Source: Magnetococcales bacterium DCbin4 (GTDB lineage: Bacteria; Pseudomonadota; Magnetococcia; Magnetococcales; UBA8363). From it: 39,097 nt of DNA. Below are positions 29,126 through 38,074 of the stretch, one piece after another (position 1 is the first letter of the stretch; each line of letters starts with the position of its first letter). The stretch lies in assembly GCA_002753735.1 (NCBI GenBank), contig PEAN01000035.1, forward strand, positions 1-39,097. Reading direction: 5' to 3'. Both the position numbers and the translations under genes were made by a program. The notes below the pieces were generated by a model. The model made no database searches. It had not been told where the DNA came from and saw only the letters and a program-made list of their open reading frames with translations.

Positions 29126-29546
29126 CCGATCCATCTTCCCGTTGATCAATGTTATTGTTTGCCAAGGTCAAAGCATGGTCACACCGGGATCCATGGATCT
29201 GACGGCTTCCATGAAGATTATCCGGAATCTCCACGGAAACGACAATGTGAAATAAATTTCAGTTTTATATAATTTTGCTTTACGTTTGATTCGATCTGCG
29301 GCTATTACAATAAAATTCATCGTGGAACGCAAACGGGAATGACGAAACCATGCCTTCGATGTTGGGTGCAATTTCAAAACAGATGACAGGGGTCTCCATC
29401 GAGGAAACAATTTTGCGCAATCATCAATGAACAAGGGAGCATTGACCCGTTTGGTCAAGACCCGCGAACGGCGTCACCCGGGCCAGCGCCAAATTCCAGG
29501 AGCGGGGCAGATGGAAAACGGTCCTGGAAATCGCGCCCGCTCCGCA
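29126..29546. other. Intergenic region between the transporter operon and the DGR locus
   Basis: About 420 bp without a convincing gene. The part 29230-29340 is AT-rich and should hold the promoter of the minus-strand transporter operon. The rest becomes GC-rich toward the hairpin of the second variable gene. A plus-strand open frame beginning near 29427 runs antisense through the FGS gene and is a shadow. Confidence 0.6.
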
Positions 29547-29602
29547 GTCCATGTCCTGGGCACCCCGGCGCTCCGCTGGCCGGGGCGGCCCCGGACATGG
29601 AC
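29547..29602 (-). other. Hairpin/cruciform downstream of VR2
   Basis: A 56-bp inverted-repeat structure: outer arms GTCCATGTCC (29547-29556) and GGACATGGAC (29593-29602), inner arms CCCCGGC (29563-29569) and GCCGGGG (29579-29585). It lies 38 bp beyond the end of variable repeat VR2. In the Bordetella phage DGR a hairpin just past the initiation-of-mutagenic-homing site is needed for target recognition; the matching position here suggests the same role. No T-run follows, so it is not a standard terminator. Confidence 0.8.
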
Positions 29603-29633
29603 CGCTCCGCTCCTGCCTGCTTGCCTGCCCGGC

Positions 29634-30539
29634 TCACGGATGAACTCGGGCACAGCGGAAGCCCAGACCGTCGAAGCGGCCGTCGGAGGGGTGCCTGCTG
29701 CGGTACGCCGCCCGCACGTAGCGAGCGAAGCCGATCCAGGACCCGCCGCGGATGACACGGTCGCCGCCGGCTTCATCATCCTGCCAGGAAGATCCATCGG
29801 TAGGTGCCCCTTCATAGCTTTCATGCCAATGATCATTGCACCATTCCAATACATTGCCCAGCATGTCGTACAACCCCCATGGATTGGGAGCTTTACGGCC
29901 TACCGGGTGGGTGCCAGCCTGTGTGTGCGGATACTGTTTCTCCTCCCAACCTGTGTTGTCATAACCATCATCCAACTCAAAACCAACCCCGCTGTTACCG
30001 CCGTACCAGGCGATAAGATCCAGGGCCGGAGCGTTATGTTTGCCGAGGATTTTGATGTCGCCGGTATAAAGGGCTGTGGTGGTACCGGCACGACAGGCAT
30101 ACTCCCACTGCGCCTCCGATGGCAGGACCAGATTGAGGCCGGGCAGGTCATCGTTGATCCGCTTCAAAAAAATCTGAACATCGTCCCAGCTGACCTGTTC
30201 CACCGGTCGGTCGGGTGTTTTGAAATAGCTCGGGTTGTCGCCCATCACCGCCTGCCAGAGCGCCTGGGTGCAGGGAGTGTCGAACAACCAATAGCCTTTT
30301 TCAATCGTCACCTCATGCCGTGGGCCTTCACCCTCAAAGCGGCCCGGTTCGTCCTCGGGTGATCCCATCCAAAACCGTCCGGGAGGGATCCAGCGCAGAC
30401 GCTGGCGGACCACACCGATGGCAAATTCGACGAAAACGCCCCGACGATCCTCACCCCAGCCACTGGCCCATGGGGGTGGGGAACCATCGGCCAGGGGATG
30501 CCATGCGGTATCGACCAACGAAGTCGGGGACATATACAT
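29634..30539 (-). CDS. DGR target 2: stand-alone FGS (sulfatase-modifying-factor/C-type-lectin-like) protein with variable C-terminus
   Basis: A 301-residue protein that is almost entirely an FGE-sulfatase/SUMF1 domain (about 47-301: RWIPPGRFWMGSP, PVEQVSWDDVQIFL, LPSEAQWEYACRAGT, PWGLYDMLGNVLEWC, VIRGGSWIGFARYVRAAY, LGFRCARVHP). The Cys pair used by true formylglycine-generating enzymes is absent from the GGSW segment, so a ligand-binding role is likely. Start at ATG 30539 with GGAGGA just upstream. It closely resembles the C-terminal domain of the large vWA-FGS protein in protein and DNA, even past the stop codon into the hairpin, so it arose by duplication. It lies beyond the template repeat. 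The last 44 residues are the variable repeat. Confidence 0.92.
   Translation of the reverse strand: MYMSPTSLVDTAWHPLADGSPPPWASGWGEDRRGVFVEFAIGVVRQRLRWIPPGRFWMGSPEDEPGRFEGEGPRHEVTIEKGYWLFDTPCTQALWQAVMGDNPSYFKTPDRPVEQVSWDDVQIFLKRINDDLPGLNLVLPSEAQWEYACRAGTTTALYTGDIKILGKHNAPALDLIAWYGGNSGVGFELDDGYDNTGWEEKQYPHTQAGTHPVGRKAPNPWGLYDMLGNVLEWCNDHWHESYEGAPTDGSSWQDDEAGGDRVIRGGSWIGFARYVRAAYRSRHPSDGRFDGLGFRCARVHP
29641..29773 (-). repeat. DGR variable repeat VR2
   Basis: About 133 bp at the 3' end of the second FGS gene, homologous to the template repeat at 30686-30818. Between the GC-rich 3' block (29641-29666, putative initiation-of-mutagenic-homing site) and 29773 I count 13 substitutions, all at positions where the template coding strand has A. 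Template Asn residues become Asp, Ile, Phe, Tyr, Ser, Gly and Phe. Outside adenines the copies are identical in this interval. Confidence 0.95.
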
Positions 30540-30685
30540 GCCTTCCTCCGAAAAGAAACCGGACGGCGAGCCTTCACCCGGGCACCACCAAGGCTACCAG
30601 CACGCCGCCGGAACTGAGTTTCGGCGAACCGTAAGGGACGCCATGGACGATATGTCTGTTCATACCCGGAACATCCATCCGGCCG

Positions 30686-30818
30686 TGAGCTCGGGCACAG
30701 CGGAAGCCCAGATCGTCGTTGCGGTTGTCGGAGGGGTGCCTGTTGCGGTACGCCGCCCGCACGTTGCGTGCGTTGTCGTTCCAGGACCCGCCGCGGATGA
30801 CACGGTTGCCGCCGGCTT
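30686..30818 (-). repeat. DGR template repeat TR
   Basis: A non-coding repeat beginning 24 bp after the reverse transcriptase stop codon. On the minus strand it would read GGNRVIRGGSWNDNARN and so on, with seven AAC codons placed at the binding-site positions of the FGS fold, the hallmark of a DGR template (AAC can mutate to many codons by adenine changes without creating a stop). The 3' block 30686-30711 matches the VR initiation block except one C/T difference (the IMH* versus IMH distinction). It is not followed by the hairpin found after both VRs. The sequence on to 30540 shows no convincing gene. Confidence 0.95.
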
Positions 30819-30841
30819 TTCGACCATCGCCCTTCTTGATT

Positions 30842-31861
30842 CTAAAGATTGCTCAGGAGGTCTGCAAGCGGCTGGCGGCGTAACTGTTCACGGCGCCAGG
30901 CGGAAGCATCGGTGTGGGCCGTCAGCGCCAGGGTATGGGTCATCCCGGTCTGCAAGGTGGCGACATCGATCCGCCCTGCGGCATAATCTTCTTCCCAGCG
31001 ACGGCGAGCCGCGATGTAACGGCGTTTGCGACGGCGCGACAACAACAGACGATCAGGAAGGATACGGTAGCCACAAAAGAGAAGGCCATCACCGCTGCGA
31101 CCGATATGCACCGGCTCCTTGACCTCCAACCTGAGGATTCCGGCAACATGATCGCGCGTCCGGGTCATGGACTCCTTCATGGCCGCCTTATCGTCGCCCC
31201 ACCAGACAATATCATCCATGTAACGCACCATTCCGCGCACCCGGCACTTCTCCAACAACAACCGATCGATTTCGCCCAGGTAATGGTTGGCAAAGTGTTG
31301 CGAAGTCAACGCGCCGATGGGCAACCCCATGCCCGGACTTGTCTGATGGGCGTGGATGATCCGCGTCATCAGATGCAGCAAACCACGATCCTTGAACCGG
31401 CGTGCCAATTTGCCAAGCAAAAGGGTGTGGTCAATGGCGGCAAAATAGCCACGGATGTCAATCTTGGCGTACCAGGGATAACGCCCGAGATGGTGGCGGG
31501 CACGGTGGACCGCAGCAAGGGTTCCTTTGCCGACCCTGCAAGCGAAGGTATCCTCCACCAGGGCACGGTCAAGTACCGGGCCAACGTGTGCCATCAAGGC
31601 ATGGTGCAAAACTCTTTCGCGAAAACAGGGGGCATGGATGATGCGCGGCTTGGGATCGCGGATGCGAAAAGAACGCATGGTGCCCACGGCAACCGAACCG
31701 TCGAGAATATCATTTTGCAGACGGGCCAGCTCGCCATGAAGATCGGCGCGGAAAAACCGCACCTCGTCCCGGCTTCCTTTCCCCTGCGCAGCGCGGTGGA
31801 AGGCTGCCGCCAGGTTGTGCCAGTCCGCAACCTCTGCCAGCCCGACAGCACTACGTTTCAT
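30842..31861 (-). CDS. Diversity-generating retroelement reverse transcriptase
   Basis: A 339-residue RT starting at ATG 31861 (MKRSAVGLAEVADW), overlapping the end of the HRDC gene by 11 nt (ATGAAACGTAG), so translation is coupled. RT motifs: RIIHAPCFRERVLHHAL (motif 2), YAKIDIRGYFAAID (motif 3, Asp135), GLPIGALTSQHFANHYL (motif 4, with the SQ form typical of DGR RTs) and RYMDDIVWW (catalytic YMDD, 214-217). There is no maturase, endonuclease or retron ncRNA signature. It makes error-prone cDNA of the adjacent TR RNA, which replaces VR sequence in the two FGS genes. The frame stays open upstream to 32215, but that part is the HRDC gene in another frame. Confidence 0.96.
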   Translation of the reverse strand: MKRSAVGLAEVADWHNLAAAFHRAAQGKGSRDEVRFFRADLHGELARLQNDILDGSVAVGTMRSFRIRDPKPRIIHAPCFRERVLHHALMAHVGPVLDRALVEDTFACRVGKGTLAAVHRARHHLGRYPWYAKIDIRGYFAAIDHTLLLGKLARRFKDRGLLHLMTRIIHAHQTSPGMGLPIGALTSQHFANHYLGEIDRLLLEKCRVRGMVRYMDDIVWWGDDKAAMKESMTRTRDHVAGILRLEVKEPVHIGRSGDGLLFCGYRILPDRLLLSRRRKRRYIAARRRWEEDYAAGRIDVATLQTGMTHTLALTAHTDASAWRREQLRRQPLADLLSNL

Positions 31862-32333
31862 GGGCGACGCCACCAGCAGTGGCGGGTTGGGAAGTCTGGC
31901 GCAGAATCCGGAGAAATGCCTCACCGTACTTTTCCATGCGTGCGTCGCCGATACCGGGAATACCTTGCATCGCCGCCTTGGTCTGGACACGACGCTGCAC
32001 CATTTCCGCCAACTGATCATTGGTGAACAGGGCGTAGGCGGGAACCCCTTCGGCTTCGGCCATCTCCTTGCGAAGCGAACGCAATTTGGCGAACAGGGCG
32101 AAGTCCTGATCGTTAAGCACTTCACGATAATCAATCTTGGAACGCGATTTTCCCGATTGCCCCTGGCCATCGGAAGGTTCAAAACTGACACAAATCGCCC
32201 AGGCACTGTTGGCACCGTCCTGAACGAGGGAACGGTCGATGGCCAGAATGCGATGTGAACTCAAAAAACGATTCAGCTCCTCGAACGCCGAGTCACCGCC
32301 ATGCACGGCAATGGTGAAGAATCGAAATTGCAT
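31851..32333 (-). CDS. HRDC-domain DGR accessory protein
   Basis: A 160-residue protein. The N-terminal part (MQFRFFTIAVHGGDSAFEELNRFL, then AWAICVSFEP) is a small alpha/beta region, and the C-terminal part (about 78-146) is an HRDC domain: LFAKLRSLRKEMAEAEGVPA, FTNDQLAEMV, MQGIPGIGDARMEKYG. HRDC domains bind nucleic acid in RecQ helicases and RNase D. HRDC genes are a known alternative accessory gene in DGRs, and here no Avd-like four-helix protein is visible. A role in binding TR RNA, cDNA or the target during homing is inferred. It overlaps the RT start. Confidence 0.88.
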   Translation of the reverse strand: MQFRFFTIAVHGGDSAFEELNRFLSSHRILAIDRSLVQDGANSAWAICVSFEPSDGQGQSGKSRSKIDYREVLNDQDFALFAKLRSLRKEMAEAEGVPAYALFTNDQLAEMVQRRVQTKAAMQGIPGIGDARMEKYGEAFLRILRQTSQPATAGGVAHET

Positions 32334-32370
32334 CAGATCTCCCTTTCAAAAAATTCGCTCGCGCTCCGCA

Positions 32371-32426
32371 GTCCATGTCCCGGGCTCCCCGGCGCTCCGC
32401 TTGCCGGGGCGGCCCCGGACATGGAC
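32371..32426 (-). other. Hairpin/cruciform downstream of VR1
   Basis: Same structure and length (56 bp) as at 29547-29602: outer arms GTCCATGTCC (32371-32380) and GGACATGGAC (32417-32426), inner arms CCCCGGC (32387-32393) and GCCGGGG (32403-32409). It starts 38 bp past VR1, the same distance as for VR2. About 106 bp downstream of both VR genes are nearly identical, including both stem pairs. Confidence 0.8.
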
Positions 32427-32457
32427 CGCTCCGCTCCTGCCCGCTTGCCTGCCCGGC

Positions 32458-35121
32458 TCACGGATGAACTCGGGCACAGCGGAAGCCCAGATCGCCGAAG
32501 CGGTAGTCGGAGGGGGGCCTGAAGCGGTACGCCGCCCGCACGAAGCGTGCGAGGCCGAACCAGGACCCGCCGCGGATGACACGGATGCCGCCGGCTTCCC
32601 CATCACCCAGCCAGGGAGTGCCATCGGTCGGTGCCCCTTCATAATTTCCGTGCCAATGATCGGCGCACCATTCCCATACATTGCCCAGCATGTCGTACAA
32701 CCCCCACGGATTGCAAGCTTTGAGTCCCACCGGGTGGGTTCCAGCCTTCGTGTGCGGATACTGTTTCTCCTCCCATCCCGAACTGTCTTCCCCCTTGTCC
32801 AACTTAAAATCGACCCCGCTGTTGCCGCCATACCAAGCGATGGGATCCAGGGCAGGGGCGTTATGTATGCCGAGGATTTCGATGCCACCGGTATAAAGGG
32901 CGGTGCTGGTACCGGCACGACAGGCATACTCCCATTGTGCCTCTGACGGCAGAACCAGATTGAGACCGGGTAGTTGATCGTTGATCCGCTTCAAAAACGT
33001 CTGAACATCGTCCCAGCGAACCTGTTCCACGGGTCGGTCTGGGGTTTGGAAACGGCTTGGGTTATCGCCCATCACCGCCTGCCAGAGCGCCTGGGTGCAG
33101 GGGGTGTCGAACAGCCAGTACCCTTCCTTGATCGTCACCTCATACCGTGGACCTTCGTCCCCATCGCGCCCCGGTTCATCCGCAGGCGAACCCATCCAAA
33201 ACCGCCCAGGGGGAATCCAGCGCATCTTTTGTCGGGCCTGACCCACCACGAATTCCGCCCACAGCCCGAAGCGGTCGCGCCCCATGGCATCGGCCCAAGT
33301 GGGACGGCCGAGACGGCGGAAACTCAGGCGTTCGCAATCGCTCCGGATATGGAACCCGGGAGCGGAAGGAAGATCGCAAACCGTTTTCCGGGGATCCCCA
33401 AGCAGGATCGGCGGAGACGAATCATGCGGATTTTCAATGGTGATCAGACCATTAATCGAATGCAACGTTCCAAGCCAACTGCCAGTCGGTAATATTGGAA
33501 GTTCCTGTTTCAGTTCCAGACGGCCTTCCGACTGAACAACATGGAAGCGCCGTACCACGGGGAGATCTGATTGATGATCACCTTCGATCAGTTCCGGTCG
33601 AAATCCGGGCGGCGGGACGTAATTTGGATCGGAACCATGGAGGGCATGATCCAGACGGATGATCTGTTCTCCGAAGACCGGGTCCTGCCAAAAATGGGCG
33701 TTGGCCCGTTTTTTCACCTTCCGAAACCAGGCATGCCGGTCGCTGCTCCCCGCATCCTGGCCATGGTTCCTGGACCGGTCACTGAACCAACGCCAAAAGT
33801 CGCGGGCAAAGGTTAAATCATCAGGAGAGACCTGGTGTGATTGGCTGTCGGTGCCAAAATTAGCAATTTCATCCGCCACCACCTCATCGGCCATATTCCA
33901 ACGCCACCGGCGCCAATGGTGCAGGACCATGGCGCGGTCCTCATTGGAATGACCGTCGAATCCGGCCCGCAGTTCCGCATTTGCCTCGGGCGTCAGGGAC
34001 GCGGCCACGCTGTGCGTGCTGCTCAGGGCGGAATGGCTCCACACATCCGCCTCGGTGCCGGCATCCGCCCGTTCCGGACCCAACGCAAGCCGGACATCGC
34101 GCAACAATCCCGGCTCGATGCGCACCAACGTTCCCAGGAGGCGCAATAGTTGTTCCGCCCGCGCCGTCAATACTTCCGGTGCATTCGTCGCGCCGCTCCG
34201 ATCCCGTTCCCACGCCACACACTGCCACCAATGTTTCAGTTCGGACGGAAAACGCTCCAACGGCGCGGGAAACAGGACCACCCCCCGGCACGATTGGGCC
34301 TGCAAGCGACGCCCAAGGTCGAGCCATGGCGCCCGGGCTTGACTTCCGCCCCGTTGCAATGCCCCCAGGTCCCCCAAAACAAAAACGGTTCCCCCCGGAG
34401 GCGGCAAACGGTATCCCCCTTCCGAATCACCCAGGAGCCGAGGTTCATCCAATCCTTCATGAAACCGGGCCGCTTCAAGATCATTCTCGCCCAGGATGGA
34501 GGCGAGATCGGCAAAGACCCGTTGCTGATCTTTCCAGAAGGGGACCAGATGCTCGCTGCGATCCAGGACGACCTGAACCGAACGCCCCCACTGGCGTTTG
34601 CGACGGCGAGGAATCCGGGGAAGCAGTCGACCCCGCTCCATGTAATGAAGAATACGGGCAATATCCGGCTCGTGACCTTCCTGCCATTGTGCCAAAACCT
34701 GGCGCAACCGTGGTTGCAATTCCGGCCAGGTGGTCAAGAACCGAAACCTTGGCGGATCCTTGGGACGACCCTGCCAGACAGGGGGGGTAGAGGCAAAGAT
34801 CACAATTGGAGGCGGTGGTGCAGTGGATTCCTGGGCGTAGCCGACCTGTTGCCAAAACAACACTGGAATCAAAGGTTGTGGCTGCAAGGAATCTTTTTGT
34901 TCAGTCCCTTGGACAGACGAATCAGGAGGAACCTTTGAAAAGACGGATCCTGATTCCGCATGATCCATTAACTCATCCATCTCCTCGGGAGGTGGATGGT
35001 ATCCCAAAAGAATGGACATCCCCCTGATGACCCCATCATCCTTCAGTGAACAGACCCGAACCAGATCAGCCCGCCCGCAGATTCCCGAATGGATCACTGT
35101 TTTTTCCCGGTGGAGGCTCAT
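32458..35121 (-). CDS. DGR target 1: vWA-like/FGS fusion protein with variable C-terminus
   Basis: An 887-residue protein from the ATG at 35121 (AGAGGG 7 nt ahead; the frame stays open to 35214 without a site). Residues 1-175 are Pro-rich and unrecognised. Residues about 180-300 look like a degenerate von Willebrand A domain (SVQVVLDRSEHLVPF with D187/S189; TVFVLGDLGAL; RGVVLFPAPLERFP). A helical section and a beta-rich linker follow to about 630. The FGS domain is 633-887 (RWIPPGRFWMGSP, PSEAQWEYACRAGT, GLYDMLGNVWEWC, RGGSWFGLARFVRAAYRF). Residues about 844-885 are the variable repeat. The FGE catalytic Cys pair is absent. Next to a MoxR ATPase, vWA plus FGS suggests a receptor whose variable tip binds ligand and whose vWA region couples to MoxR. 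The vWA call is inference. Confidence 0.9.
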   Translation of the reverse strand: MSLHREKTVIHSGICGRADLVRVCSLKDDGVIRGMSILLGYHPPPEEMDELMDHAESGSVFSKVPPDSSVQGTEQKDSLQPQPLIPVLFWQQVGYAQESTAPPPPIVIFASTPPVWQGRPKDPPRFRFLTTWPELQPRLRQVLAQWQEGHEPDIARILHYMERGRLLPRIPRRRKRQWGRSVQVVLDRSEHLVPFWKDQQRVFADLASILGENDLEAARFHEGLDEPRLLGDSEGGYRLPPPGGTVFVLGDLGALQRGGSQARAPWLDLGRRLQAQSCRGVVLFPAPLERFPSELKHWWQCVAWERDRSGATNAPEVLTARAEQLLRLLGTLVRIEPGLLRDVRLALGPERADAGTEADVWSHSALSSTHSVAASLTPEANAELRAGFDGHSNEDRAMVLHHWRRWRWNMADEVVADEIANFGTDSQSHQVSPDDLTFARDFWRWFSDRSRNHGQDAGSSDRHAWFRKVKKRANAHFWQDPVFGEQIIRLDHALHGSDPNYVPPPGFRPELIEGDHQSDLPVVRRFHVVQSEGRLELKQELPILPTGSWLGTLHSINGLITIENPHDSSPPILLGDPRKTVCDLPSAPGFHIRSDCERLSFRRLGRPTWADAMGRDRFGLWAEFVVGQARQKMRWIPPGRFWMGSPADEPGRDGDEGPRYEVTIKEGYWLFDTPCTQALWQAVMGDNPSRFQTPDRPVEQVRWDDVQTFLKRINDQLPGLNLVLPSEAQWEYACRAGTSTALYTGGIEILGIHNAPALDPIAWYGGNSGVDFKLDKGEDSSGWEEKQYPHTKAGTHPVGLKACNPWGLYDMLGNVWEWCADHWHGNYEGAPTDGTPWLGDGEAGGIRVIRGGSWFGLARFVRAAYRFRPPSDYRFGDLGFRCARVHP
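32465..32597 (-). repeat. DGR variable repeat VR1
   Basis: About 133 bp at the 3' end of the vWA-FGS gene, collinear with the template repeat. I count 15 substitutions between VR1 and TR within 32491-32597, all at template adenines (to T, G or C); no non-adenine position differs. The encoded changes turn template Asn/Asp/His into Ile, Phe, Gly, Leu, Phe, Phe, Pro, Tyr, Phe and Gly, giving an aromatic-rich surface distinct from VR2. The 32465-32490 block is the putative initiation site. Confidence 0.95.
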
Positions 35122-35269
35122 GGTTGAGCCCTCTGCAAAAAGTCCAGGAAAAAATCGAGAATATAATAACTTTAACCGCTTAAAAAAATAATTGCATTTT
35201 TCATATATATTCATATTTTTTTATGCTGCGTGAGAGACGGGTTTACAATAGAGACTTTTTGTAGTGGAC
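35122..35269 (-). promoter_or_regulatory. AT-rich gap with possible internal promoter before the vWA-FGS gene
   Basis: The only sizeable gap in the first part of the operon (148 bp) and much more AT-rich than the flanking genes. On the minus strand there are TATATT/TTATATTC-like boxes and A/T tracts, so a separate promoter for the vWA-FGS and DGR genes is plausible. No ORF with a ribosome binding site is present. Confidence 0.4.
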
Positions 35270-36250
35270 TCATGGTTGGTTTCGTTTCGCATCGGGATGT
35301 TTGCTCACCGTAAACCGCGCCACACGATCCAGCAACGCCTTCTGTTCCTTCGGCTTCTCGGGTGCCATGTCCGATACCGCACGCAAAAGATCAAGGAATT
35401 CCGCCTGACCCGGCAAGGGGCGCCAACGCGCCGCTTCCGCTTCACGGCGATCCTGGATCAACATTTCAGCAGCGCTGTTCAAAACCTCTTGATCCAGCTT
35501 GAAATGGACTTTGGCCCGTTCGATCAAATGTTGTTTCAGTGGTTTTTCTTCCCTGGGCAACCCCATGTGCAGCACCAGACAGCGACGCACAAAAGCGGGC
35601 GGCAAAGCACGTTCCTCGTTGGTGGTGATGATCACCAGCGGCACTTTTTCCGTGCGCATGACCGGATCTTCCCATCCGGGAGGGTGAAGACTTCCCATCC
35701 CCAACGCCTCAAGCAATCCATTGGGGACATCGGATTCCGCCTTGTCGATCTCATCGATCAGGACCACACATCCGTTGTTCGAATCGCACCCTTCAGCTTG
35801 ACGCGGTGGCTTGTGTTGATGCTTTGCCGCTTGTTTTGCCGCCGAATCCCAGTTCAACGCCCACCACAGCGGACGGGGATGCACAAAATTGCGCACGGCC
35901 AGATCACGATGCAGTTCTTCCCGTGAAGTCACATCCCCGCAGGCGCCCCGCAATTGCGCCTCGGCCAACCGGGACACCGCATCATAATGCCACAGCAGGT
36001 CGGAAGATTCGGTACGGGAATCGACGACAAACTGGACATAGGCCCGCTTCAAAACCACAGCCGCCGCCCGTGCCAATTGACTTTTGCCAATCCCGGGTTC
36101 GCCCCGCACCAGCAACGGGCGTTGCGCAGCCAATGCCGCTTCCACGGCATGAAGGTCCAGTTCACTGAAAAAATGATTCAGTGCCGGAAAACCATCCGTG
36201 GCAGGACGTTGGATTGTAGCTCCAGGTTTGATCTTCATTTGAAGACTCAT
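35270..36250 (-). CDS. MoxR-family AAA+ ATPase
   Basis: A 326-residue AAA+ protein. Walker A is GEPGIGKS (50-57), Walker B is VLIDEIDK (163-170), sensor 1 is TTNEE (Asn211) and the arginine-finger region is FVRRCL (222-223). Family-typical LLVRGEPGIGKSQLARAAA and NGLLEALGMGSLHPP segments are present, with an insertion of about 50 residues before Walker B. MoxR ATPases act as chaperones together with vWA proteins. Its partner here is probably the vWA-like/FGS product downstream. AAGGA precedes the ATG; the protease gene ends 13 bp upstream, so they are co-transcribed. Confidence 0.92.
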   Translation of the reverse strand: MSLQMKIKPGATIQRPATDGFPALNHFFSELDLHAVEAALAAQRPLLVRGEPGIGKSQLARAAAVVLKRAYVQFVVDSRTESSDLLWHYDAVSRLAEAQLRGACGDVTSREELHRDLAVRNFVHPRPLWWALNWDSAAKQAAKHQHKPPRQAEGCDSNNGCVVLIDEIDKAESDVPNGLLEALGMGSLHPPGWEDPVMRTEKVPLVIITTNEERALPPAFVRRCLVLHMGLPREEKPLKQHLIERAKVHFKLDQEVLNSAAEMLIQDRREAEAARWRPLPGQAEFLDLLRAVSDMAPEKPKEQKALLDRVARFTVSKHPDAKRNQP

Positions 36251-36263
36251 GTCTCTTTCCTTC

Positions 36264-37733
36264 TCATTTGTCCTTCAGGGGAACCATGCGGCGTACTGAA
36301 TTATATTGCCCAACCTCAAATTTTTTCAGTTGGATATCGTCGTTCAAAGCAAGACAGGCAATGGGATATTTTTCTGAGATATATTCCATCATTTTACGTA
36401 TTTCCGTTTGTTTATTTGAATCACTTGGCATAAGAAACGCCAGATAGGATGTACGTTTCCCAGCATCCCGCTCATCTTTGAGATAATCTAAAACGACAGG
36501 TAGTTTCTCATAAAGATCTCTTACTTGTTCTCCAGGTTCTTCATCATAGAATTTATTGACCAAATGATGATTCAAATCATTGATAAATTTATCTTGCGAA
36601 CCAAAACCGGAATCTGGAGCATCCGGCAATTGAAGGACCCCCTTCGGAAATTGAGTTTCCCTTTCTCTTGGACGAAACCGTGTTTCCCGGCTATCGACAC
36701 CCGCCATGACGATTTCCGCCACGGTCGCATGAAAGGCCGGCACATCAACAAGCAATGCTTTGTTTTTTTTCTTATCGATCCGAACACCCTCAATAACACC
36801 ATGGTCATACAAAGCGGGCAATAGTAACATAAAGACATCGTACAATACATCCGCATGATTGGCCTCCCCATTCTCGACAGCATTCAACCATGCAGTATTA
36901 AAGGCTTTCAACATGTCATGGAATGAAACCTCCAGGAGACAATCCGCCAATATCCCCACTTTTTTTTCTGGAGATGCACCACTCCATGTATCGTTCTTTA
37001 TCAATCCCCTCGCCACTGAATCAATAATATCGAATGAATTCTTAATCTTTCCCATTAAACGGCCACGATATTCATTGATCCTTTTCTGCTTGTCGTCGTA
37101 TCCAATCGCTTTACGAAAATCAGAATCCTCCAGCATCTTCCAGGAAGGAACCGCATGTATTCTTGCGCTATTGAAACCTGTCGGATTGGATCTTACGATA
37201 CCAAGAATCTTCCTCCGGACAAAGACCGCCATCCCGGAAACCCCCTTCCATCCTTCTTCCCGATCTGGATTCGCATCTTCGGAGAGTTCAAAGCAGGGTT
37301 CGGCATCCGCCTTGGAATACACACGGCCTTGAAAGCTGGCGGCCTTTGGAAGTTCTTTCCGCCGAGCCACATGTGGAAAACCCTCGCTGGCCCACCGTGT
37401 GTCCTCGCTTGGCCGATCCGATGAAAGAAACAGAGACTCCTTTGGCGTCCACTCCTTTTCAGGAAGACGCAGCAACGCGGCATCCAGTTCACCCTCGCCA
37501 CGCCAAACAATCGCATCATCCGCCAACGTCAACCAACCCTGATCGCCATCCACCTTTGGTTTGTGGTACCACCATTTGGCTTTGATAGGCTTCTGATTGT
37601 CCCGGTCCTTGGTTTCCAGGACATGTCTGGCCGTCAGAATCAAGTTCGGCACTACAGGGTAACCCGTGGCCAATTCAGCAAGGCCGTCCTTGCTCGGAAC
37701 ACTGATCAGCACCACATAATTTTTAAAATTCAT
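36264..37733 (-). CDS. Trypsin-like serine protease of the conflict operon
   Basis: A 489-residue protein with an N-terminal chymotrypsin-fold domain (about 1-210). A catalytic triad can be proposed: His37 in LILTARHVL, Asp84 in GELDAALLRL and Ser166 in GVSGMAVF, with the following LGIV strand. No signal peptide, so it is cytoplasmic. The C-terminal 280 residues are mostly helical with no domain I recognise; they may be a sensor or effector. ATG 37733 is preferred over the adjacent TTG. It lies 14 bp after the Trypco2-like gene and 13 bp before moxR. In MoxR-vWA systems such proteases are proposed as proteolytic relays or effectors. Confidence 0.85.
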   Translation of the reverse strand: MNFKNYVVLISVPSKDGLAELATGYPVVPNLILTARHVLETKDRDNQKPIKAKWWYHKPKVDGDQGWLTLADDAIVWRGEGELDAALLRLPEKEWTPKESLFLSSDRPSEDTRWASEGFPHVARRKELPKAASFQGRVYSKADAEPCFELSEDANPDREEGWKGVSGMAVFVRRKILGIVRSNPTGFNSARIHAVPSWKMLEDSDFRKAIGYDDKQKRINEYRGRLMGKIKNSFDIIDSVARGLIKNDTWSGASPEKKVGILADCLLEVSFHDMLKAFNTAWLNAVENGEANHADVLYDVFMLLLPALYDHGVIEGVRIDKKKNKALLVDVPAFHATVAEIVMAGVDSRETRFRPRERETQFPKGVLQLPDAPDSGFGSQDKFINDLNHHLVNKFYDEEPGEQVRDLYEKLPVVLDYLKDERDAGKRTSYLAFLMPSDSNKQTEIRKMMEYISEKYPIACLALNDDIQLKKFEVGQYNSVRRMVPLKDK

Positions 37734-37747
37734 CAATGGCTACTCCA

Positions 37748-38074
37748 TCATGCCGAAGGATCCGGTACCCGGTCCGAAACATACACATCCAAACCTCCCT
37801 TCCTATCCGAATTCATCGGTTTGAGCTTCAATCGAACCTTCATGATGGATTCCGATTTCACCTCCCCCTTGGCCTTGGCATCGATCACCCAAAACTTCAC
37901 CCCAGCTTCGACACCGCCCGTTTTTGTGGCAGCAACACTCAAATCAAGGTCGATTTCCTCAACTTTAAACCTTATTTCCTTATTATTTCCTTGATGTTGC
38001 GCCGTCAGCAATTCGTCGCGCAAATTTGCGATGGCGCTGGAAAGCTGGATCAAACCTTCTTTTTCCCCGGACAT
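37748..38074 (-). CDS. Trypco2-like (trypsin-co-occurring domain) protein
   Basis: A 108-residue protein. It has an N-terminal helix (LIQLSSAIANLRDELLTAQ) followed by alternating strands (KEIRFKVEEIDLDLSVAA, GVEAGVKFWVIDAKAKGE, MKVRLKLKPM). This matches the small trypsin-co-occurring domain 2 found beside trypsin-fold proteases in prokaryotic conflict operons. Its partner would be the protease encoded 14 bp downstream. It is first gene of the minus-strand operon, with GAAAGGGGGA before the ATG. Its activity is unknown; a regulatory or adaptor role is inferred from association. Confidence 0.8.
   Translation of the reverse strand: MSGEKEGLIQLSSAIANLRDELLTAQHQGNNKEIRFKVEEIDLDLSVAATKTGGVEAGVKFWVIDAKAKGEVKSESIMKVRLKLKPMNSDRKGGLDVYVSDRVPDPSA

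What the first reader, a model, noticed from the sequence alone, without database searches (positions are those of the whole stretch)
29641..32597. Adenine-specific divergence proves an active or recently active DGR
Aligning both VRs to the TR, I find 15 (VR1) and 13 (VR2) substitutions, and all 28 lie at adenines of the template coding strand; no other position differs in the core interval. Seven AAC codons in TR sit at the diversified sites. This is the signature of mutagenic retrohoming and means both genes were rewritten from the same template.
Basis: seen in the sequence. Interest (0 to 1): 0.9.

Follow-up and report, generated by a model that had tools for sequence, protein, structure and literature searches.

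The report
Diversity-generating retroelement with two targets
This stretch carries an intact bacterial gene-diversifying machine that copies one template, with errors only at its A bases, into the ends of two lectin-like sensor genes beside a putative defence operon; it is a well-formed new member of a known kind.

Summary
All 28 lie at the 26 template adenines and none at the 103 other sites (Fisher 4e-11 and 5e-13). All seven AAC codons are changed in both VRs. The only other difference in the stated interval, TR C30689 to T in both VRs, is a conserved IMH*/IMH-type mark.

The locus is a complete DGR: a DGR-type RT (nearest solved structure 8UB7), an HRDC accessory gene, TR, and two FGE/C-type-lectin targets. 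It sits in a probable operon with a MoxR ATPase, a trypsin-like protease and Trypco2. This matches the 'clade 5A' layout of Doré et al. 2024. Recent activity is well supported; ongoing activity is untested.

Added here: (1) a covarying ~140-nt RNA just 3' of TR in 28 of 35 related loci, absent from Rfam; (2) a long hairpin with GNA-type loop motifs after VRs but not TR; (3) the long target's N-terminus, of a type reported to lack predicted domains, folds like a vWA domain; (4) two RT-less relics in the genus that look like VR×TR recombination scars.

The parts
30690..30818 (-). Template repeat (TR) core, 129 nt, starting 24 nt after the RT stop; 26 A, 7 AAC codons
30686..30689 (-). 3' end of TR; C30689 (GAGCTC) is T in both VRs (GAGTTC): IMH*/IMH-type difference, conserved in most related loci
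29645..29773 (-). Variable repeat VR1, 3' end of the short target; 13 substitutions, all at template A
32469..32597 (-). Variable repeat VR2, 3' end of the long target; 15 substitutions, all at template A
30842..31861 (-). Reverse transcriptase, 339 aa, DGR type (LPIGALTSQ, YMDD), intact; nearest solved chain 8UB7
31851..32333 (-). HRDC-domain accessory gene, overlaps the RT start (RecQ-type HRDC)
29634..30539 (-). Short target, 301 aa, FGE/C-type-lectin domain only, ends in VR1
32458..35214 (-). Long target, 918 aa: N-terminal extension plus FGE/C-type-lectin domain (residues ~638-917) ending in VR2
34204..34599 (-). vWA-like fold in the long target, residues ~206-337 (model residues 67-198), with degenerate DxS and GDLG motifs
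30553..30693 (-). Structured RNA element immediately 3' of TR (candidate spacer/priming RNA); also the leader of the short target gene
29544..29605 (-). Long inverted repeat after VR1, ~36 nt beyond its end, GCGGAGC at apex
32368..32429 (-). Long inverted repeat after VR2, ~36 nt beyond its end, GCGGAGC at apex
35270..36250 (-). MoxR-like AAA+ ATPase (Walker A GEPGIGKS, Walker B VVLIDE)
36264..37736 (-). Trypsin-like protease candidate (TARHV...DAAL...GVSG triad motifs), C-terminal half unassigned; weak LmuA/Avs1b protease hits
37748..38074 (-). Trypco2 (trypsin-co-occurring domain 2)

Best explanation
A complete chromosomal diversity-generating retroelement. An RNA covering TR and the structured element just 3' of it is bound by the RT with the HRDC protein (inferred by analogy with BPP-1). 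The RT copies TR and misincorporates opposite A only. The cDNA replaces the VR at the 3' end of each FGE/C-type-lectin target (shown by sequence: both VRs equal TR except at A). A T-for-C mark at the 3' edge and a long hairpin after each VR, both absent from TR, probably make the VRs recipients and leave TR a donor (inferred). The targets are probably variable sensors of a MoxR / vWA-like / trypsin conflict system encoded in the same operon (inferred from gene context and fold). The element was active recently enough that no ordinary substitution has accumulated in either VR.
For: 28/28 substitutions at template A, to G, T and C. TR/VR layout and A-specificity repeated in 24 further loci from proteobacterial and other genomes. 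RT nearest to solved 8UB7 at E 5e-40 versus 1.7e-11 for a group II intron RT, intact ORF with YMDD and a GxxxSQ motif. HRDC accessory, as described for T. denticola DGRs (PMC4891356). FGE domain closest to T. denticola TvpA 2Y3C, Z 26.6. RNA model hits at the same place in 28/35 loci, at least 8 of them not used in building; 23/26 pairs with changes on both sides, 0/500 shuffles. VR-flank stems median 14 versus 8 in random windows and 7 in TR flanks. Target paralogs 15.5% divergent next to VRs with 0/103 non-A differences.
Against: No reads or second strain of the same species, so ongoing diversification is not shown. The two VRs share six identical substitutions out of nine co-changed sites, more than equal base choice would give; T bias or some exchange between the targets could explain it. 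Sensor function and conflict role rest on context only.
Confidence: 0.94

Rival explanations
1. A relic: the DGR worked in the recent past but is now silent or defective.
For: A single genome shows outcome, not process. Related loci in the genus have lost HRDC and RT (L087, L088).
Against: RT, HRDC, TR, RNA element, TR/VR edge mark and hairpins are all intact, and 0/206 non-A sites have changed. In the RT-less relic L088 the VRs differ from the TR of the same genome at 2 and 5 non-A sites as well as 13 A sites.
Confidence: 0.2
2. The repeats are ordinary duplicated C-termini kept alike by gene conversion, with diversity due to selection on surface residues.
For: The targets are paralogs and the segment after the VRs is also alike (95% over 105 nt).
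Against: Selection or conversion would not confine changes to the template's A at all codon positions with 0/103 others, nor place a non-coding third copy next to a DGR RT.
Confidence: 0.02
3. The hairpins after the VRs are just transcription terminators rather than part of the target site.
For: They are GC-rich stem-loops, and in this window they lie just beyond the stop codons.
Against: In roughly half of the relatives the hairpin region lies inside the target reading frame, some between tandem lectin domains. They follow VRs and not TRs, and the GCGN(N)AGC motif is strand-oriented: 44/51 versus 4/51 reversed.
Confidence: 0.12

Closest known systems
Clade 5A DGRs, e.g. Thiohalocapsa PB-PSB1 DGR 8 (Dore et al. 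2024, PMC10907252)
   Same: [quoted passage not shown] Trypco and trypsin-like genes adjacent
   Different: Different host; RT phylogeny against their reference set not run; the N-terminal extension, which they report as having no predicted domain, models here as a vWA-like fold
Treponema denticola TvpA DGR (PMC4891356; structure 2Y3C)
   Same: HRDC accessory gene overlapping the RT; FGE-type C-type-lectin target, Z 26.6
   Different: Lipoprotein surface targets and TR-accessory-RT order there; here accessory-RT-TR order with intracellular-looking conflict-system targets
Bordetella phage BPP-1 DGR (PMC3240598, PMC12875486)
   Same: A-specific TR-to-VR transfer, IMH/IMH* difference, structured RNA 3' of TR, stem-loop after VR
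   Different: HRDC protein instead of Avd; stems of ~20-30 pairs with internal loops instead of 7-10 bp; apex motif GCGGAGC instead of a GRNA tetraloop; chromosomal
MoxR-vWA-VMAP ternary conflict systems (Kaur et al. 2020, PMC7159879)
   Same: MoxR ATPase, trypsin-like protease, Trypco2 and a DGR-linked FGE domain fused to a vWA-like module
   Different: No canonical VMAP domain detected in the protease; vWA-like domain too divergent for Pfam

Membership tests
Diversity-generating retroelement | TR/VR pair whose differences are confined to template adenines | tested here: met
   28/28 at A; Fisher 4e-11 and 5e-13
Diversity-generating retroelement | Adjacent RT of the DGR lineage | tested here: met
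   Nearest solved chain 8UB7, E 5e-40, far above group II intron and retron RTs (that 8UB7 is the BPP-1 DGR RT is my own knowledge); GxxxSQ and YMDD motifs read from sequence. No tree was built.
Diversity-generating retroelement | Accessory protein (Avd or HRDC type) | tested here: met
   HRDC, E 1.2e-18
Diversity-generating retroelement | VR at the 3' end of a C-type-lectin-fold target | tested here: met
   Both targets end 7 nt after the VR interval; FGE domain, best fold TvpA 2Y3C
Diversity-generating retroelement | IMH/IMH* difference at the 3' edge | tested here: met
   GAGCTC in TR, GAGTTC in both VRs; the same kind of mark in most relatives. Function not tested.
Diversity-generating retroelement | RT-dependent ongoing diversification | not testable with these tools
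   Needs reads or experiment
Clade 5A DGR (Dore et al. 2024) | MoxR upstream of long target, short lectin-only second target, Trypco/trypsin neighbours | tested here: met
Clade 5A DGR (Dore et al. 2024) | RT falls in clade 5A of their tree | not tested
MoxR-vWA-VMAP ternary system | vWA domain partner | tested here: inconclusive
   No Pfam hit; AF2 model pLDDT 84, vWA domains take ranks 1-15 at Z 8.3-9.8 except one HGPRT at 8.3; Foldseek E > 0.02
MoxR-vWA-VMAP ternary system | Canonical VMAP domain | tested here: inconclusive
   No Pfam match in the protease C-terminus; its fold was not modelled
Group II intron, retron or antiviral DRT reverse transcriptase | Best match to those RT models above curated cut-off | tested here: not met
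   TIGR04416 86.8 bits versus cut-off 300; retron and Drt models far below cut-off

The most novel reading that the evidence does not exclude
This DGR lineage uses a shared, so far undescribed pair of structured signals: a ~140-nt RNA family 3' of TR, and long DNA hairpins carrying a GNA/GNNA mini-hairpin loop motif after the VRs. The latter would join the GRNA loops of phage DGRs and these under one DNA-hairpin rule. Its long targets carry a hidden vWA domain that completes the MoxR ternary system, and VR x TR recombination prunes the RT from copies, leaving targets that may be served in trans.
Probability: 0.45. Interest if true: 0.6.

Novelty: new member of a known kind. Interest (0 to 1): 0.42.

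Why it matters
It adds a clean two-target member to the chromosomal DGRs tied to putative conflict systems, where function is still open. The conserved RNA element, the VR hairpins and the RT-less relics give defined parts to test how such DGRs choose recipients and how they are lost. The vWA-like fold offers a concrete link between the variable sensor and the MoxR ATPase.

Tried and rejected
Checked for further VR or TR copies in the genome: none; the segment after the VRs is likewise present only twice. Checked for phage or plasmid carriage of this RT lineage: viral contigs give only 31% relatives, plasmids at most 39%. Rfam gave only chance microRNA matches below cut-off. Whole-flank folding energy was a poor test of the hairpins because the region is GC-rich, so a stem score with random and shuffled controls was used instead. 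Foldseek alone did not identify the N-terminal domain (best E 0.027); VIA-align favoured vWA but only 1.5 Z above unrelated phosphoribosyltransferases. Solved-structure sequence search of the protease gave nothing. A literature search for a Magnetococcales link (an untested guess at the host) found nothing. GCGGAGC also occurs at the stem base in some flanks, the window included, so it is not purely an apex motif.

Full report
Observation. In the 129-nt core, VR1 has 13 and VR2 15 differences from TR, all at template adenines, out of 26 A and 103 other sites (Fisher 4.4e-11 and 5.2e-13). One non-A difference lies in the stated interval, at TR C30689, T in both VRs. All seven AAC codons of TR are changed in both VRs. 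A is replaced by T, G and C (18, 8, 2 here; 303 T, 337 G, 98 C in the family), which is not the pattern of a single deaminase.

Anatomy. On the minus strand the order is Trypco2 (37748-38074), trypsin-like protease (36264-37736), MoxR ATPase (35270-36250), long target (32458-35214), HRDC gene (31851-32333), RT (30842-31861), TR (30686-30818), RNA element (30553-30693), short target (29634-30539). The genes are same-strand and close-set, probably an operon (inferred). The RT's nearest solved relative is 8UB7 at E 5e-40, against 1.7e-11 for a group II intron RT; that 8UB7 is the BPP-1 DGR RT is my own knowledge. The FGE domain of the long target is closest to T. denticola TvpA, 2Y3C, Z 26.6.

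Family. Twenty-four further loci with related RTs carry the same layout: TR just after the RT, one VR about 1 kb beyond it and one about 1.8 kb before it, some with a third VR in tandem lectin domains. Over 25 loci and 52 VRs, 715 of 1256 A sites differ against 63 of 4757 non-A sites; 28 of 52 VRs have no non-A change.

Recency. The two targets differ by about 15.5% over the 600 nt before the VRs, yet neither VR has any of 103 non-A sites changed. If the VRs had diverged like the coding sequence beside them, this would have a chance of about 3e-8 each. That supports rewriting later than the gene duplication, hence recent activity. It does not show present activity.

RNA element. RNAalifold on 19 loci found 23 pairs 3' of TR, 16 with changes on both sides. 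A covariance model hits at the position just 3' of TR in 28 of 35 loci, including at least eight loci not used to build it (L044, L046, L048, L052, L054, L057, L059, L061) plus same-genus L071 and L072. On those matches 92% of cells pair and 23 of 26 pairs change on both sides; 0 of 500 shuffles and no slid version come near. The alignment was fitted to the model, which favours the structure, but the slide control falls to 32-48%. No Rfam family matches. By analogy with BPP-1, whose spacer RNA 3' of TR recruits the RT complex and primes cDNA (PMC12875486), this is the likely priming element (inferred).

Hairpins. Each window VR is followed after about 36 nt by a long stem (29544-29605 and 32368-32429). 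Across 51 VR flanks the stem score has a median of 14, against 8 in random windows of the same loci, 8 in shuffled flanks and 7 in TR flanks; 23 of 51 exceed the 99th percentile of random. GCGGAGC occurs in 38 of 51 VR flanks, 1 of 25 TR flanks and 1.9% of random windows. The wider GCGN(N)AGC occurs in 44 of 51 in the coding orientation and 4 of 51 reversed. GNA and GNNA loops closed by G-C pairs form unusually stable DNA mini-hairpins (PMC4686876). Guo et al. showed that BPP-1 needs a stem-loop after VR with free stem sequence and a GRNA loop (PMC3240598). The stems differ between loci but are often alike within a locus (between-locus median 0.66). In roughly half of the loci the motif lies inside the target reading frame, which argues against a simple terminator.

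Long target. Dore et al. [quoted passage not shown] An AlphaFold2 model of residues 140-560 has pLDDT 84 and pTM 0.82. VIA-align puts vWA domains at Z up to 9.8 over 117 residues, rmsd 2.8, with the first unrelated fold at 8.3. The alignment keeps D-x-S after the first core strand and an invariant D in GDLG after a later one, as a degenerate MIDAS would. I take this as probable but not proven.

Relics. The RNA model also found same-genus copies without a nearby RT. In L087 and L088 a target ends in a diversified VR-like sequence with the TR-type GAGCTC edge or RNA element directly after it, followed by the second target, with HRDC and RT missing. This is what recombination between VR2 and TR would leave (inferred). 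The L088 VRs match the TR of the same genome (L070) at all but 2 and 5 non-A sites while differing at 13 A sites, which suggests past or trans service.

Verdict. The finding is correct and the interpretation sound apart from 'proves active'. It is a new member of a known kind, close to clade 5A of Dore et al. The extra features are worth following; I could not check the supplementary material of that paper, so their novelty is uncertain.

Noticed in passing
L087:4925-6108 and L088:4570-5742 (same-genus genomes G006, G007): RT-less cassettes: a VR-like end fused to the TR-side RNA element and then a second target, as if VR x TR recombination had deleted HRDC and RT.
   Followed up: partly
window 30553-30693 (-) and 28 matches in related loci: Covarying ~140-nt RNA 3' of TR, not in Rfam; it also forms the leader of the short target.
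   Followed up: yes
window 29544-29605 and 32368-32429; 51 VR flanks: Long hairpins after VRs, often near-identical within a locus and different between loci (homogenised by an unknown process), with an oriented GCGN(N)AGC motif.
   Followed up: partly
window 36264-37736 (-): Trypsin-like protease candidate with weak similarity to LmuA and Avs1b proteases; its C-terminal half is unassigned.
   Followed up: no
window 35270-36250 (-): MoxR ATPase resembles NCBIfam MadB_ATPase (62 bits, E 4e-17, well below the curated cut-off of 475).
   Followed up: no
G000:C110:83-715: A second, unrelated-looking reverse transcriptase elsewhere in the genome (RVT_1, 104 bits).
   Followed up: no
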